64,000 nucleotides of DNA from Nitrosomonas eutropha. Its GTDB lineage: Bacteria; Pseudomonadota; Gammaproteobacteria; Burkholderiales; Nitrosomonadaceae. This document shows, one piece after another, positions 9,925-18,106 of this stretch (within the stretch, counting starts at the first letter, position 1; each line of letters opens with the position of its first letter). The stretch covers positions 1-64,000 of the forward strand of contig NZ_FPBL01000004.1 of the NCBI RefSeq assembly GCF_900116685.1, in the 5' to 3' direction. The position numbers and the translations under genes were made by a program. The notes below the pieces were generated by a model that had not been told where the DNA came from, made no database searches, and saw only the letters and a program-made list of their open reading frames with translations.

Positions 9925-10338
9925 TCAGTGGTCATGATCTTCTGCTTCGGGAACAGGCTCTACAAATTCTGTTCGTCCGCCAAATTCCCGACGTATTTCC
10001 TGTTCTTTGAAATCTTCTCGATTGGATTCATCTCCAAATTCCCTACGCGCGGCTTCCTCTTCAAATTCCATACGCTCATCTTGCATTTCGTTTCCTTGGA
10101 TTGCCGATTGCGAAGCTGATTTGTTGTCAGCTTCTGTTCCAGAGGCTGCAATATGCGTTGATTGGGAAAGATTTGAATGTTGGGAAATGGGGAGGACATT
10201 TGTTGTACTTCCTTTGTTTGCTGGTATTTTCCAGTCAAATTCTGATGTATCAGCCGTGGCGGCAGCAGGAAATGAAAATACTGATGTCGATAAACCGGCT
10301 AAGCCAGCAATACAAATGATGGTAGCGATCTGTTTCAT
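9925..10338 (-). CDS. Small secreted acidic protein of unknown function
   Basis: I do not recognise this family. From the ATG at 10338, preceded by AAGGGG at good spacing, it encodes 137 residues. A signal peptide (MKQIATIICIAGLAGLSTSVFS) is followed by a Ser/Thr/Gln-rich region and a highly charged tail with two related units, AARREFGDE and EIRREFGGR, each preceded by acidic residues. It ends DHDH. The product is probably periplasmic and disordered. A metal-binding role for the His/Asp tail is only a guess. It is monocistronic between lemA and trmB. Confidence 0.6.
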   Translation of the reverse strand: MKQIATIICIAGLAGLSTSVFSFPAAATADTSEFDWKIPANKGSTTNVLPISQHSNLSQSTHIAASGTEADNKSASQSAIQGNEMQDERMEFEEEAARREFGDESNREDFKEQEIRREFGGRTEFVEPVPEAEDHDH

Positions 10339-10453
10339 GATATATCCCCTTGACAAGTTGTTATGAAAAACAGTGTATACCTGTTACATAAATACAATAT
10401 ATGGGTATCACTAAAAGTATTTACTGCCTTGGAAATATTCCGAAAAGGATTGT

Positions 10454-12289: not shown

Positions 12290-12360
12290 GCGGGTGTAGC
12301 TCAATGGTAGAGCAGAGGCTTCCCAAGCCTACGACGAGGGTTCGATTCCCTTCACCCGCT
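12290..12360 (+). tRNA. tRNA-Gly (anticodon CCC)
   Basis: A full cloverleaf can be drawn. The acceptor stem GCGGGTG (12290-12296) pairs with CACCCGC (12353-12359), with T as discriminator. There is a D-arm, an anticodon loop TTCCCAA giving anticodon CCC, and a T-arm containing TTCGATT. CCA is not encoded. The outermost base pair of the anticodon stem appears mismatched (G-A). Confidence 0.9.
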
Positions 12361-12456
12361 CATCCAGAGACTGACAGCGCACGTTAATTTTATCTGCCGG
12401 AATTATCCGATTACCGAGAGTGATTCTTTAACTATTACAAAAATTCAGAAAACCTG

Positions 12457-13044
12457 ATGACTATTCGTTTAATCAGACAGATCCTGTACATTCTGTCTGC
12501 AGTTTTACTGCTGTTGCTTTATGGTACCGCCTGGGCGGAAAAATCTGCCGCCCCCCCGGATTCCCTGAAAATTCTTGGCTGGGTTGAGTTTATTCGCCTG
12601 GAACCTTGGGGAATCAAGATGCCTGCACGAGTCGATACCGGCGCTAATACTTCTTCCATGAGCGCTCGCGATATTGAGGTATTCAGAAAAAATGGCAAGC
12701 CATGGGTTAAATTTACCTTTGATTTCAGGAAGGGTTCCGGGAAACGCTCTGTCGAGATTGAGCGCCCACTGACCCGGATGCTTAAAATCAAACAGCACGA
12801 TGGACCTTCTCAAGAACGCCCGGTGATTTCTATGGAAATCTGTCTGGCAGATGAGGTCCGGGAAGCCGAGTTTGATCTGATTGATCGTCGTGCCCTGAAT
12901 TATCCGGTATTGCTCGGACGCAAGGCGCTGGCCGGTTATGCACTGGTTGATCCCGCGCGTGCCTATCTCACCAAGGCGGTGTGTGGTCACGTCAAGAAGA
13001 AAAAAAAGAGTGATGAACCAACTGATTCCAGGCAGCCTGAATGA
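12457..13044 (+). CDS. Retropepsin-like aspartic protease (RimK-associated, 'ATP-dependent zinc protease' family)
   Basis: The 195-residue protein has a signal peptide or anchor (about residues 8-27, ending AWA) and then the pepsin/retropepsin-type active-site motif RVDTGANTSSM near residue 60. The family core follows: WVKFTFDF, ERPVISMEICLA and YPVLLGRKALAGYALVDP. Databases call it a Zn or ATP-dependent protease, but the visible catalytic signature is the Asp-Thr-Gly of a retropepsin. It ends in a Lys-rich tail and overlaps the next gene by 4 bp. The operon with a 7-TM transglutaminase-like protein and a RimK-like ligase suggests processing of a peptide made by the ligase in the periplasm. 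Confidence 0.85.
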   Translation: MTIRLIRQILYILSAVLLLLLYGTAWAEKSAAPPDSLKILGWVEFIRLEPWGIKMPARVDTGANTSSMSARDIEVFRKNGKPWVKFTFDFRKGSGKRSVEIERPLTRMLKIKQHDGPSQERPVISMEICLADEVREAEFDLIDRRALNYPVLLGRKALAGYALVDPARAYLTKAVCGHVKKKKKSDEPTDSRQPE

Positions 13045-14573
13045 GAAAACTGCATCTGTACTTGCTGGCCTTCATACTATGTTCCATAGGGCTGGGACTG
13101 GCCTATTACAAGGTTACTGTAATTGGTCTGCCTTTAACTGCTTCCGCACAGGCAGAGGTATGGGATATTGAAGCGCGTATCAGCTTTCGCGCCAAATCTG
13201 ACAACGCGATCAAGGTAACCTTGCCACTACCGCTTAACCCTCCCGGTTATTCCATTCTTGATGAGGATTTTGTCAGTGCGGATTACGGGCTGGCAATCGA
13301 ACAGGATAATACCGGTCGCGTTGCGCACTGGGCCAAACGAAGGGCACAGGGTAAGCAGTTACTGTTTTATCGGGTTGTATTATTTGAAAACGAGGATGCT
13401 GTACAAAAGCCGGATGTAGCGCCGGTTTATCCGAAGGCGCCGGAGTATCCGGAAAACCTGGCCCCGGTGATTCAAGGACTGTTGGATAAGGCGCGTCAGC
13501 AATCTGCTGATACCGTTTCTTTTTCGCAGCGTGTGATTGAACAGCTGAATGCAGTAGCTTCCATACCGGAGCTGAAATTGCTGTTGAAGCATATCAACCG
13601 GACACGTAACCTGGCAAAGAATCTGAGCTGGATACTGGCCGGTGCCCGTATTCCTTCCCGTATCGTTCGTGGTCTGCGCCTGCAGGACAACAAAGAATAT
13701 TCGGAGTTGGAGCATTTCCTGCAGGTTTATGATGGCAAACAGTGGCGTTCACTGAATATCAAGGATGGACAGGAAGGATTGCCGCCAAATTTCATTGTGT
13801 GGCAGATTGACGATGACCGGGTTTTCTCAATTGAAGGCGCTACAGAATTGAGCATTCAATATACCGTTGCCAGTGCATTACAGGAAACCATCAATATTGC
13901 TGGCTCCCGTTCGGCGGAAAGAGGTTTCCATCTGATGGACTTTTCACTGTACTCGCTGCCTGTGCATGTTCAGAATGTGTACAAAGTGTTGTTGATGATA
14001 CCGCTGGGCGCTTTGGTAGTGGTATTCATGCGCAATATCATCGGAATCCGGACGTTTGGCACATTTATGCCGGTCCTGATCGCACTGGCTTTCCGCGAAA
14101 CAGAATTGTTATGGGGCGTGATTCTGTTCTGCCTGATTGTCGGTCTCGGATTGTTGCTGCGCGCCTATGTTGAGCAGTTGAAGCTGCTGCTGGTGCCTCG
14201 CCTTGCAGCGGTGCTGACCATGGTGGTGTTGCTGGTCGCTGGTGTTAGCGTAGTGATGCACAAGCTCGGGCTGGAAACCGGGTTATCCGTGGCCTTGTTC
14301 CCGATCGTTATCATGACGATGACAATCGAACGCATGTCACTGACCTGGGAAGAAGCCGGGCCGGCTGAAGCATTCAAGCAGGTGTCAGGTAGCCTGTTGG
14401 TGGCGATAATGGGTTATCTGGCCATGAATATCAATGAATTCCAGTACATGTTCTTTGCCTTTCCCGAACTGTTGCTGGTGGTGTTGGCTACAATCCTGCT
14501 GCTGGGGCGCTACTCGGGTTACCGGCTGATGGAACTCTGGCGTTTCCGTGCATTTGCGCGGAACAAGCCGTAA
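13041..14573 (+). CDS. Inactive transglutaminase fused to seven transmembrane helices
   Basis: The 510-residue protein has an N-terminal helix (residues 5-24) and a large extracytoplasmic domain to about residue 310 that includes the transglutaminase-like stretch around ILAGARIPSRIVRGLRL. The C-terminal half has about seven hydrophobic helices, including FGTFMPVLIALAFRE. The Cys-His-Asp triad of active transglutaminases is not evident, in line with the family description of an inactive domain. It is the middle gene of the set, overlapping the protease by 4 bp and followed after 4 bp by the ligase. It probably scaffolds or transports the ligase product. Confidence 0.88.
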   Translation: MRKLHLYLLAFILCSIGLGLAYYKVTVIGLPLTASAQAEVWDIEARISFRAKSDNAIKVTLPLPLNPPGYSILDEDFVSADYGLAIEQDNTGRVAHWAKRRAQGKQLLFYRVVLFENEDAVQKPDVAPVYPKAPEYPENLAPVIQGLLDKARQQSADTVSFSQRVIEQLNAVASIPELKLLLKHINRTRNLAKNLSWILAGARIPSRIVRGLRLQDNKEYSELEHFLQVYDGKQWRSLNIKDGQEGLPPNFIVWQIDDDRVFSIEGATELSIQYTVASALQETINIAGSRSAERGFHLMDFSLYSLPVHVQNVYKVLLMIPLGALVVVFMRNIIGIRTFGTFMPVLIALAFRETELLWGVILFCLIVGLGLLLRAYVEQLKLLLVPRLAAVLTMVVLLVAGVSVVMHKLGLETGLSVALFPIVIMTMTIERMSLTWEEAGPAEAFKQVSGSLLVAIMGYLAMNINEFQYMFFAFPELLLVVLATILLLGRYSGYRLMELWRFRAFARNKP

Positions 14574-14577
14574 TATC

Positions 14578-15528
14578 ATGTTTGGAATCTGGGAAAGGCT
14601 CAAGCAGAGCGGAGTCGTTGGTATGAATCAGCGCAATGCTGATTTCATTCTGCGTTATAACAAGCGCTCGCTTTATCCGCTGGTGGATGACAAGTTGCGG
14701 ACCAAATATCTGGCGGCAGCTTCCGGTATTGCGGTACCCGAGCTGTATGGCGTGATTGAAATCCAATATGATGTCAGCCGTGTTCCAGAGATCGTTAAAG
14801 GTCATGAAGACTTCGTGATCAAACCGGCGCATGGTTCGGGAGGCAGCGGTATTTGCGTTATTACCGGGCGTCTCAACAATCGTTACCGGCAGAATAATGG
14901 TGACCTGCTGACTGAGGAGGATATCGAATATCATATTTCCAATATACTCAGCGGCTTGTACAGCCTGGGTGGTCAGCCCGATCAGGCACTGATTGAATAC
15001 CGGGTCAAGTTTGATCCGCTGTTTGAGGAAGTTTCCTATCGTGGCGTGCCGGATATTCGCACTATCGTCTTCAGAGGAATTCCGGTCGCCTCCATGGTAC
15101 GTCTACCAACCCGTATGTCGGACGGCAAGGCCAATCTTCACCAGGGTGCAGTGGGTGCTGGTATCGATATGATGACCGGCCGTACCACCTATGCTATCTG
15201 GCAAAATTATCCGATTGAACAACACCCGGATACCGGCGTTGCCATCAGCGGACTCGAAATTCCTCACTGGCATAAATTGCTGACATTAGCAGCGCAATGC
15301 CATGAACTGGTCGGATTGGGCTATCTGGGGGTGGACGTTGTGCTCGATCGGGAATTGGGTCCGCTGGTACTGGAACTCAATGCACGCCCTGGTTTATCCA
15401 TCCAGATTGCTAACCGCAGAGGTATGAGTCAGTTGCTGGAAAAAATCGCTAAATTGAAAGAAATTCCTGCCTTGGCATCAGATCGCGCCACACTGGGGCA
15501 ACAATTGTTTCTAGAAAATCAGACCTGA
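14578..15528 (+). CDS. RimK-like alpha-L-glutamate ligase (ATP-grasp)
   Basis: This ATP-grasp amidoligase joins an amino acid to a carboxylate or peptide through an acyl-phosphate. The 316-residue protein from the ATG at 14578 has the ATP-grasp features FVIKPAHGSGGSGI, the segment DIRTIVFRGIPVASMVRLP, LHQGAVGAGIDM, and the metal-binding end LGPLVLELNARPGLSIQIANR. Its substrate is unknown. It closes the three-gene set. The fixed gene order in proteobacteria is established knowledge. A link to osmotic or cell-envelope physiology is inference. Confidence 0.88.
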   Translation: MFGIWERLKQSGVVGMNQRNADFILRYNKRSLYPLVDDKLRTKYLAAASGIAVPELYGVIEIQYDVSRVPEIVKGHEDFVIKPAHGSGGSGICVITGRLNNRYRQNNGDLLTEEDIEYHISNILSGLYSLGGQPDQALIEYRVKFDPLFEEVSYRGVPDIRTIVFRGIPVASMVRLPTRMSDGKANLHQGAVGAGIDMMTGRTTYAIWQNYPIEQHPDTGVAISGLEIPHWHKLLTLAAQCHELVGLGYLGVDVVLDRELGPLVLELNARPGLSIQIANRRGMSQLLEKIAKLKEIPALASDRATLGQQLFLENQT

Positions 15529-17566: not shown

Positions 17567-18106
17567 TCAACTAGCTGCGATCTGCAGTGGCCACCAGTTG
17601 CCGAATGGCCAGTAACCGTATAGATAAATCCAGCCAGTTATCGCGACTTCGATACCGACAAAGTATGTCATCACGATAGTCATCCCCATGAGTTTAGTGT
17701 TGTCCTTGGTCATCTTCTGGTAGAACAGGTACCAGAGAATGCCGTATGTGACCCATTCAAAGGCCCATCCCAGGTCTCCATCTATAAAAGCCTTGATGGC
17801 ATAAAGCACGGTCGTGAACGCAACCAGCAGACAGTAATACCCCAGGGCACGCTGGTCTTCAGCGCCACGAAGCGCGTTGATGCCGACCCACAGATAGGTC
17901 ATGGCGAACAGTAAACCACTGGCAGACAGTGGGAAGTTGTTCTGCACCAGGCCAAAATAAAGTGCGCCAATGGCGGCGAGAATTCCAACCAGCAGGTTGA
18001 AAATCCCAACATCCTTGGTGTCCACCTTGCCCTGTAACCATATGGCGTTAACAATCAGAATAAATCCTATGAATAGCAGTGGTACGCCTAAAAAATGGCC
18101 GGTCAT
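17567..18106 (-). CDS. AmiS/UreI family amide or urea channel
   Basis: The 179-residue protein is almost entirely membrane-embedded, with six predicted helices. It carries AmiS/UreI features: LLFIGFILIVNAIWLQG, the segment LYFGLVQNNFP, LLFAMTYLWVGINAL, WAFEWVTYGILW and the terminal WPFGNWWP. Such proteins pass urea or short-chain amides across the inner membrane. No amidase or urease gene is adjacent, only a short fragment upstream, so the substrate is unknown. Import of urea would suit an ammonia oxidiser. A ribosome-binding site AAAAAGGAT precedes the ATG. Confidence 0.85.
   Translation of the reverse strand: MTGHFLGVPLLFIGFILIVNAIWLQGKVDTKDVGIFNLLVGILAAIGALYFGLVQNNFPLSASGLLFAMTYLWVGINALRGAEDQRALGYYCLLVAFTTVLYAIKAFIDGDLGWAFEWVTYGILWYLFYQKMTKDNTKLMGMTIVMTYFVGIEVAITGWIYLYGYWPFGNWWPLQIAAS

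What the first reader, a model, noticed from the sequence alone, without database searches (positions are those of the whole stretch)
12457..15528. Three-gene amidoligase module: retropepsin, 7-TM inactive transglutaminase, RimK-like ATP-grasp ligase
The genes overlap or abut by 4 bp and form a self-contained unit with a peptide-forming ligase, a membrane scaffold with a periplasmic peptide-binding-type domain, and a periplasmic aspartic protease. The module is known from comparative genomics, but its product and substrate are largely unsettled. It is the best candidate in the window for a poorly described system.
Basis: partly seen in the sequence, partly recalled or inferred. Interest (0 to 1): 0.65.

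Follow-up and report, generated by a model that had tools for sequence, protein, structure and literature searches.

The report
Known Rlo polyglutamate envelope operon
A Nitrosomonas genome carries the recently described rlo operon, and relatives of it with built-in export parts suggest that it makes a glutamate chain, moves it out of the cell interior and trims it in the envelope.

Summary
The three genes are real, at the stated coordinates, and under purifying selection (dN/dS 0.05-0.13 against the three nearest relatives). They are the rlo operon of a Nitrosomonas: a secreted retropepsin (RloA), an inactive transglutaminase with seven membrane helices (RloB) and an ATP-grasp ligase (RloC). 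There RloA cuts poly-glutamate, and loss of rloB or rloC rescues loss of the proteases. What RloB and RloC do is unsettled.

New here is comparative evidence on that point. RloB and RloC were found in the same 34 genomes in two searches of 200. In 15 other-architecture genomes the pair is fused, or lies beside barrel-like (partly also TPR) genes, or beside a cyanophycin-synthetase-like gene; none of the 15 has a recognisable secreted RloA. I conclude, with moderate confidence, that RloC makes a poly-glutamate chain, RloB passes it across the inner membrane and RloA clears it. Against a strict rule: 15 of 80 named genomes with inactive-transglutaminase RloB also lack a recognisable secreted RloA.

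The parts
12457..13044 (+). rloA-like gene: secreted retropepsin-like aspartic protease, 195 aa; catalytic Asp60 in DTGA, Cys129 and Cys176, basic residues Arg58, Arg107, Arg121, Arg144
   Evidence: PF05618 2.2e-37; closest PDB sequences 9g58 (1e-24), 9g59, 2pma; signal-like N-terminus and Cys pair; alignment
12634..12636 (+). codon of the predicted catalytic aspartate (Asp60)
   Evidence: alignment to the DTGA motif of 9g58/9g59/2pma; invariant in the nine sequences
13041..14573 (+). rloB-like gene: N-terminal helix, periplasmic inactive transglutaminase-like domain, seven-helix membrane domain, 510 aa
   Evidence: PF14400 5.6e-48 and PF14402 2.8e-104; catalytic triad positions are Thr, Glu, Asn here; AlphaFold model pLDDT 76.9, pTM 0.56
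13938..14570 (+). seven-helix membrane domain of RloB (residues 300-510), with charged residues kept in at least 126 of 129 rows (Arg331, Glu430, Arg431, Glu498, Arg501)
   Evidence: conservation over 128-129 rows of all architectures, one genome (G312) present twice; AlphaFold model pLDDT 81.0, pTM 0.75
14578..15528 (+). rloC-like gene: RimK-related ATP-grasp ligase, 316 aa from ATG 14578 (ORF listing also allows GTG 14548)
   Evidence: TIGR02291 5e-170, above its cut-off, PF14397 7.6e-94; 55 positions conserved in at least 97% of 116 homologues, including lysines, glycine-rich loop and Glu276/Asn278

Best explanation
This is an rlo-type operon that makes, exports and clears an acidic amino-acid chain, most likely poly-alpha-L-glutamate. 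RloC, in the cytosol, joins glutamates using ATP (inferred from family and conserved residues). RloB docks RloC and passes the growing or finished chain across the inner membrane through its seven-helix domain, while its dead transglutaminase domain holds the chain on the periplasmic side (inferred). RloA, in the periplasm, cuts the chain to short pieces (cutting of runs of 8 or 10 Glu is shown for P. aeruginosa RloA in PMC12239564; for this protein it is inferred). Without RloA the chain would pile up in the periplasm, draw counter-ions and water and harm the wall. This would explain why, in P. aeruginosa, removing RloB or RloC fully restores growth in hypo-osmotic medium and partly rescues the other defects.
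For: The same 34 genomes hold RloB (E <= 0.001) and RloC (E <= 1e-30) in two searches of 200, none of the listed genomes with one alone. RloB and RloC are neighbours or overlap in 36 of 37 loci (the 37th, L098, has a fused ligase of another type) and in 80 of 80 named loci. Fusions: L254, 816 aa (transglutaminase + 7TM + ATP-grasp) and L253, 668 aa; in L098 a 7TM_transglut domain is fused to a D-Ala-D-Ala-ligase-type ATP-grasp, one gene away from a cyanophycin-synthetase-like protein (PRK14016 1e-113, 381 of 877 bits). Six loci with an intact Cys-His-Asp triad are followed by a TPR-protein gene (6 of 6; Pfam in three, similarity to those in three) and, wherever the contig reaches, by a barrel-like gene (4 of 4). 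Nine TG-less loci in 8 genomes all have a barrel-like gene directly upstream. None of these 15 genomes has a recognisable secreted RloA: 5 lack PF05618, 10 have a RimB-type copy. Published: epistasis and poly-Glu cutting; RimK makes free poly-alpha-Glu.
Against: No product has been measured for any RloC. 15 of 80 named genomes with inactive-transglutaminase RloB have no recognisable secreted RloA, 7 of them no PF05618 at all, and neither barrel family was found in the fetched flanks of the 80 named loci, so clearing by RloA is not obligatory. Seven of the 8 TG-less genomes belong to one genus, so they are few independent events. TPR matches are unspecific: the L090 TPR protein is over the NCBIfam cut-off for PilW and type III chaperones, and below it for PrsT and PgaA. 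Barrel calls rest on weak profile scores. The 7TM domain has no confident PDB match (Foldseek best E 2.3; VIA best Z 8.4, within the range of common helical arrangements). A PgsC/CapC relationship was not supported. The two RloB-RloC fusions come from short draft contigs (about 6 kb), L253 split by one in-frame stop, and L098 is one genome.
Confidence: 0.45

Rival explanations
1. RloC adds glutamate chains to a protein or other envelope component (for example a cell-wall enzyme or lipid-linked molecule), RloB presents the tagged partner in the periplasm, and RloA removes the tag.
For: Named as a possibility in PMC12239564; RimK/RimB add and remove Glu on a ribosomal protein; cell-shape and wall-antibiotic phenotypes.
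Against: The ligase is predicted in the cytosol and the protease in the periplasm, so the tagged molecule must still cross the membrane; RloB-RloC fusions and barrel neighbours look more like chain export.
Confidence: 0.25
2. RloB is a sensor or regulator: RloA processes RloB (or its bound ligand), and RloC is controlled by RloB to change cytosolic metabolism or protein modification.
For: The periplasmic enzyme fold is catalytically dead, as in some receptor domains; rloB and rloC single mutants have milder phenotypes.
Against: In the published assay RloA needs more than six consecutive glutamates and window RloB has no such run; in nine loci the periplasmic domain is missing altogether while the 7TM-RloC pair remains.
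Confidence: 0.13
3. RloC makes a short amide or di/tripeptide osmolyte, close to what the first reader proposed to test, and RloA is a secondary recycling enzyme.
For: Some ATP-grasp ligases make short amides (N-acetylglutaminylglutamine amide, recalled); RloC gives a weak match to that synthetase family (TIGR03103, E 0.002, far below cut-off).
Against: RloA failed on six or fewer glutamates in the published assay, so its substrate seems long; the neighbour in L098 resembles a polymer synthetase.
Confidence: 0.1
4. A decaying leftover with no current function in Nitrosomonas.
For: The operon is patchy in the order: RloB in 5 of 100 genomes.
Against: dN/dS 0.05-0.13 against three near relatives (0.185 for RloA of N. 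mobilis), and catalytic residues intact.
Confidence: 0.02

Closest known systems
rloABC operon of Pseudomonas aeruginosa (PMC12239564)
   Same: Same gene order and the same three families: secreted protease with DTGA, Cys pair and basic substrate residues; inactive transglutaminase-7TM; ATP-grasp
   Different: The window's genome has one PF05618 gene in all, against three RloA plus RimB in P. aeruginosa; scores lie below NCBIfam cut-offs for the named RloA and RloB proteins
RimB-RimK (RimABK) ribosome-modification system (PMC11957791)
   Same: Retropepsin plus ATP-grasp glutamate ligase; both kinds of protease act on poly-Glu
   Different: RimB is cytosolic and the system has no RloB-type membrane protein; the window protease is secreted by sequence
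PgsBCA / CapBCA poly-gamma-glutamate synthases
   Same: Would share the logic: an amino-acid chain made at, and passed through, the membrane
   Different: No PF14102 (CapC) match in the window's genome and profile comparison not supportive; the ligase is ATP-grasp, not the Mur-ligase type (recalled for PgsB)
Amidoligase gene clusters of Iyer et al. 2009 (Mol Biosyst 5:1636)
   Same: Recalled as an early comparative-genomics description of this gene cluster; seen here only as a citation in two papers
   Different: Paper not held, so not compared

Membership tests
rlo operon (RloABC) | RloA: PF05618 retropepsin with DTGA active site | tested here: met
rlo operon (RloABC) | RloA is secreted (signal peptide) | tested here: met
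   hydrophobic N-terminus 59 residues before the catalytic Asp; SignalP not available; 57 of 58 RloA-like proteins beside named RloB loci look alike
rlo operon (RloABC) | Cysteine pair that the paper gives for periplasmic members | tested here: met
   Cys129 and Cys176 align with the pair of 9g58. The pair is not universal: 44 of 58 RloA-like proteins have it; disulfide not testable
rlo operon (RloABC) | Basic residues modelled to contact poly-Glu (K46, R92, R114, R137 in P. aeruginosa RloA) | tested here: met
   Arg58 (conservative change), Arg107, Arg121, Arg144 by alignment to 9g58; the paper's numbering was carried over by matching residue spacing
rlo operon (RloABC) | RloB: inactive transglutaminase domain plus 7TM | tested here: met
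rlo operon (RloABC) | RloC: ATP-grasp ligase next to RloB | tested here: met
rlo operon (RloABC) | Hypo-osmotic tolerance phenotype | not testable with these tools
   needs mutants
NCBIfam named proteins RloA/RloA2/RloA3 and RloB (narrow models) | Score above the curated cut-off | tested here: not met
   RloA3 145 of 210 bits, RloA 112 of 280, RloA2 101 of 250, RloB 467 of 900; so filed as an rlo-type operon, not as those exact named proteins
RimB-RimK system | Cytosolic protease without signal sequence | tested here: not met
PgsBC/CapBC poly-gamma-glutamate synthase | CapC/PgsC membrane protein (PF14102) | tested here: not met
   no match in the window's genome; RloB hits only PF14400/PF14402
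PgsBC/CapBC poly-gamma-glutamate synthase | 7TM domain distantly related to PgsC | tested here: inconclusive
   hhalign probability under 5% with few CapC sequences
RnfA/NqrD-like or ALMT-like membrane fold (7TM domain) | Shared fold | tested here: inconclusive
   VIA Z 8.4 (8ahx_A, 125 aligned, rmsd 3.6), 8.1 (8acy_D, 118, 3.2), 7.3 (7voj_A, 162, 4.5); Foldseek E 2.3 or worse

The most novel reading that the evidence does not exclude
RloB and its relatives are the membrane channel of a family of Gram-negative poly(amino acid) secretion machines driven by ATP-grasp ligases. The family comes in three settings: chain kept in the periplasm and cleared by a retropepsin (this window), chain handled by a live transglutaminase and sent out through a TPR-plus-barrel route, and chain sent out through a single barrel. 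It would be the ATP-grasp counterpart of the poly-gamma-glutamate capsule synthases.
Probability: 0.38. Interest if true: 0.75.

Novelty: new member of a known kind. Interest (0 to 1): 0.48.

Why it matters
In P. aeruginosa the rlo genes affect survival in low salt, biofilm formation and resistance to wall antibiotics (PMC12239564), yet the natural substrate of the proteases and the roles of RloB and RloC are open. The fused and barrel-linked relatives turn that into one concrete question: is an acidic chain made and moved out by RloB-RloC? The window's genome, and the N. eutropha and N. europaea genomes searched, have a single PF05618 protease gene, a simpler place to ask than P. aeruginosa with three RloA; another genome of the genus has three (G102).

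Tried and rejected
PgsC/CapC homology of the 7TM domain: suggested by eye, but hhalign gave probability under 5% in two tests with few CapC sequences, and hmmscan of RloB relatives showed no PF14102. Not claimed. The one apparent bridge (L046, genome G214, E 6.5e-4 to PF14102) reads as a heme-A-synthase-like protein (my reading of the translation), a chance match.

A strict rule 'inactive transglutaminase needs RloA' failed: 15 of 80 named genomes lack a recognisable secreted RloA. A link between the two barrel families looked strong at first (4e-32), but that profile contained the L253 protein itself; with L253 left out it is 3.7e-5 among 5516 ORFs, and 1e-6 to the L090 barrel.

Fold of the 7TM domain: no usable PDB match; RnfA/NqrD and ALMT rows are listed only as weak. 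Promoter and terminator scans gave no more than shuffles (6 against 5.3; 2 against 4.1). A solved-structure sequence search with RloB gave nothing meaningful.

Rows dropped: L143 (stop in frame) from the alignment; L262/G549 (39-position match, no RloB ORF) and L252/G412 (contig end) from the architecture counts. The structure jobs used 52 of the 80 named loci plus the window. Recalled, from no call: PgsB as Mur-ligase type, the content of Iyer 2009, N-acetylglutaminylglutamine amide as an osmolyte.
Full report
What is there. Window 12457-15528 (+) holds three tightly packed genes. The first is a 195-aa secreted retropepsin-like protease (PF05618 2.2e-37; PDB relatives 9g58, 9g59, 2pma). The second is a 510-aa inactive-transglutaminase/7TM protein (PF14400 and PF14402). 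The third is a RimK-related ATP-grasp ligase (TIGR02291 5e-170), best read from ATG 14578, 4 nt after the RloB stop. The nearest named relatives are Nitrosomonas: RloB 97% identical to N. eutropha Nm 57 and 87% to N. europaea (the tool says that the window's own record may be left out). dN/dS is 0.045-0.131 in the nine comparisons with N. eutropha, HPC101 and N. europaea; of the others, RloB and RloC of N. halophila and RloB of N. mobilis gave 0.05-0.07, RloA of N. mobilis 0.185, and four could not be estimated (synonymous sites saturated). The genome has one PF05618 gene, one PF14402 gene and one TIGR02291 gene.

What is known. PMC12239564 (abstract, passages, sections 7, 8 and 12 read) names the operon rloABC in P. 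aeruginosa. Three secreted RloA proteases are redundant for hypo-osmotic growth. RloA cuts reporters with 8 or 10 consecutive glutamates but not 6 or fewer. Deleting rloB or rloC in the triple protease mutant fully rescues hypo-osmotic growth and partly rescues the other defects. The authors name polyglutamylated proteins and free poly-glutamate as possible substrates; the held main text has no occurrence of 'transport', 'export' or 'translocat'. A Shewanella screen links an inactive-transglutaminase-7TM gene to vesicle overproduction (PMC12096838, abstract and passages). RimB stimulates poly-alpha-glutamate synthesis by RimK (PMC11957791, abstract and discussion). I found no paper that proposes RloB as an exporter or describes the variants below; the searches were made, in open-licence PubMed Central only, and I read listings of most. 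The name RloC is also used for an unrelated tRNase (listing).

Membership. The window meets the tested rlo features: DTGA site, signal-like N-terminus, the cysteine pair (Cys129, Cys176; present in 44 of 58 RloA-like proteins of the named loci), the basic substrate residues Arg58, Arg107, Arg121 and Arg144, a dead triad in RloB (Thr, Glu, Asn) and intact ATP-grasp residues (55 positions conserved in at least 97% of 116 RloC sequences). It does not reach NCBIfam's cut-offs for the named RloA and RloB proteins, so I file it as an rlo-type operon rather than as those exact proteins.

RloB and RloC are one unit. In 200 evenly drawn genomes of the phylum PF14402 hits 34 at E 0.001, and in 200 drawn the same way TIGR02291 hits 34 at E 1e-30; the two lists name the same genomes. 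The genes are neighbours or overlap in 36 of 37 loci and in 80 of 80 named loci. RloA is adjacent in 29 of 30 inactive-transglutaminase loci (the 30th genome has a secreted copy elsewhere, L114) and in 59 of 80 named loci. Among 20 genomes without RloB, 3 have any PF05618 gene.

Architectures that speak to mechanism. (I) RloA-RloB-RloC as in the window. (II) Six genomes (G060, G096, G136, G172, G447, G480) have a transglutaminase with an intact Cys-His-Asp triad. These are the only 6 of 129 RloB rows with it, and 0 of 80 named rows have the Cys or the His; PF01841 scores 1.6e-16, 5.5e-18 and 6.6e-19 in the three scanned. After the RloC part comes a TPR-protein gene in 6 of 6 (Pfam in three; similarity in L091, L093 and L254), then a barrel-like gene in the 4 loci whose contig reaches that far. 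In G480 RloB and RloC form one 816-aa protein; in G447 a 668-aa protein carries transglutaminase, 7TM and ATP-grasp, with the N-terminal piece split off by one in-frame stop. The barrel-like gene of L092 matches EpsL, an exopolysaccharide outer-membrane protein (4e-6, 26 of 275 bits). The TPR protein of L090 matches PrsT and PgaA below cut-off, but is over cut-off for PilW and type III chaperones, so its profile matches are unspecific. (III) Eight genomes (nine loci; seven of the genomes in one genus) have the 7TM domain without any transglutaminase, RloC, and a 304-365-aa gene directly upstream that scores weakly as a barrel (OMP_b-brl 0.018, DUF481 0.026 in the two scanned) and in all five examples printed ends in Phe. 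The class III barrel profile reaches the L253 protein at 3.7e-5 among 5516 ORFs and nothing in the flanks of the 80 named loci. (IV) G312 has the 7TM domain fused to a D-Ala-D-Ala-ligase-type ATP-grasp, a secreted-looking protein and a cyanophycin-synthetase-like protein in a row; it is the only genome held of its family. None of these 15 genomes has a recognisable secreted RloA: G312, G060, G136, G172 and G480 have no PF05618, and the other ten have one RimB-type copy without signal or cysteine pair.

Reading. An ATP-grasp ligase that was always found with, and is sometimes fused to, a 7TM protein, with barrel-like neighbours in some lineages and a polymer-synthetase-like neighbour in another, is most simply a device that makes and moves an amino-acid chain. 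The substrate cut in vitro by the periplasmic protease is poly-glutamate. Together with the published rescue by loss of rloB or rloC, the chain would be made by RloC, passed by RloB and cleared by RloA; without RloA it would harm the envelope. Shown: gene content, co-occurrence, fusions, residue states (here); poly-Glu cutting and epistasis (published, P. aeruginosa). Inferred: that RloC makes poly-Glu, that RloB conducts it, and that the barrel-like genes are exporters.

Results against. Fifteen of 80 named genomes with inactive-transglutaminase RloB have no recognisable secreted RloA: of the 21 loci without an adjacent RloA, 6 genomes have a secreted copy elsewhere, 8 only RimB-type copies and 7 no PF05618. 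Many are draft genomes, but Steroidobacter gossypii is a named strain. Neither barrel family was found beside the 80 named loci. The 7TM model (pLDDT 81.0, pTM 0.75) has no confident PDB match, and a link to PgsC was not supported. Barrel assignments rest on weak scores. Genomes are related, so counts are not independent events.

Verdict. The finding is real and correctly parsed, a new member of a known kind. Its value lies in the comparative clue to the unsolved biochemistry of the rlo operon.

Noticed in passing
window 17567-18106 (-): 179-aa AmiS/UreI-type channel gene (PF02293 1.9e-32), possibly for urea uptake in an ammonia oxidiser.
   Followed up: no
window 9925-10356 (-): 143-aa protein with a signal-like N-terminus and an acidic, Glu-rich C-terminus with a repeated REFG pattern and no Pfam match at E 0.01.
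   Followed up: no
window 12290-12361 (+): tRNA-Gly(CCC) 95 bp upstream of rloA on the same strand; the promoter scan found no site between them.
   Followed up: partly
L058:1987-5226: 1079-aa protein with two tandem CapC/PgsC domains (PF14102 1.5e-42); five genomes of family f26 have such tandem matches, other genomes of the sample than the four f26 genomes with live-transglutaminase RloB.
   Followed up: partly
L254:1851-4301 and L253:1154-3160: Single proteins joining transglutaminase, 7TM and ATP-grasp ligase domains.
   Followed up: yes
L098:1894-8046 (-): 7TM domain fused to a Ddl-type ligase, next to a lamin-tail-domain protein with a signal-like N-terminus and a cyanophycin-synthetase-like gene.
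   Followed up: partly
L182:7515-8458: RloC of Legionella tunisiensis appears as two overlapping frames, a broken gene or a sequencing error.
   Followed up: no
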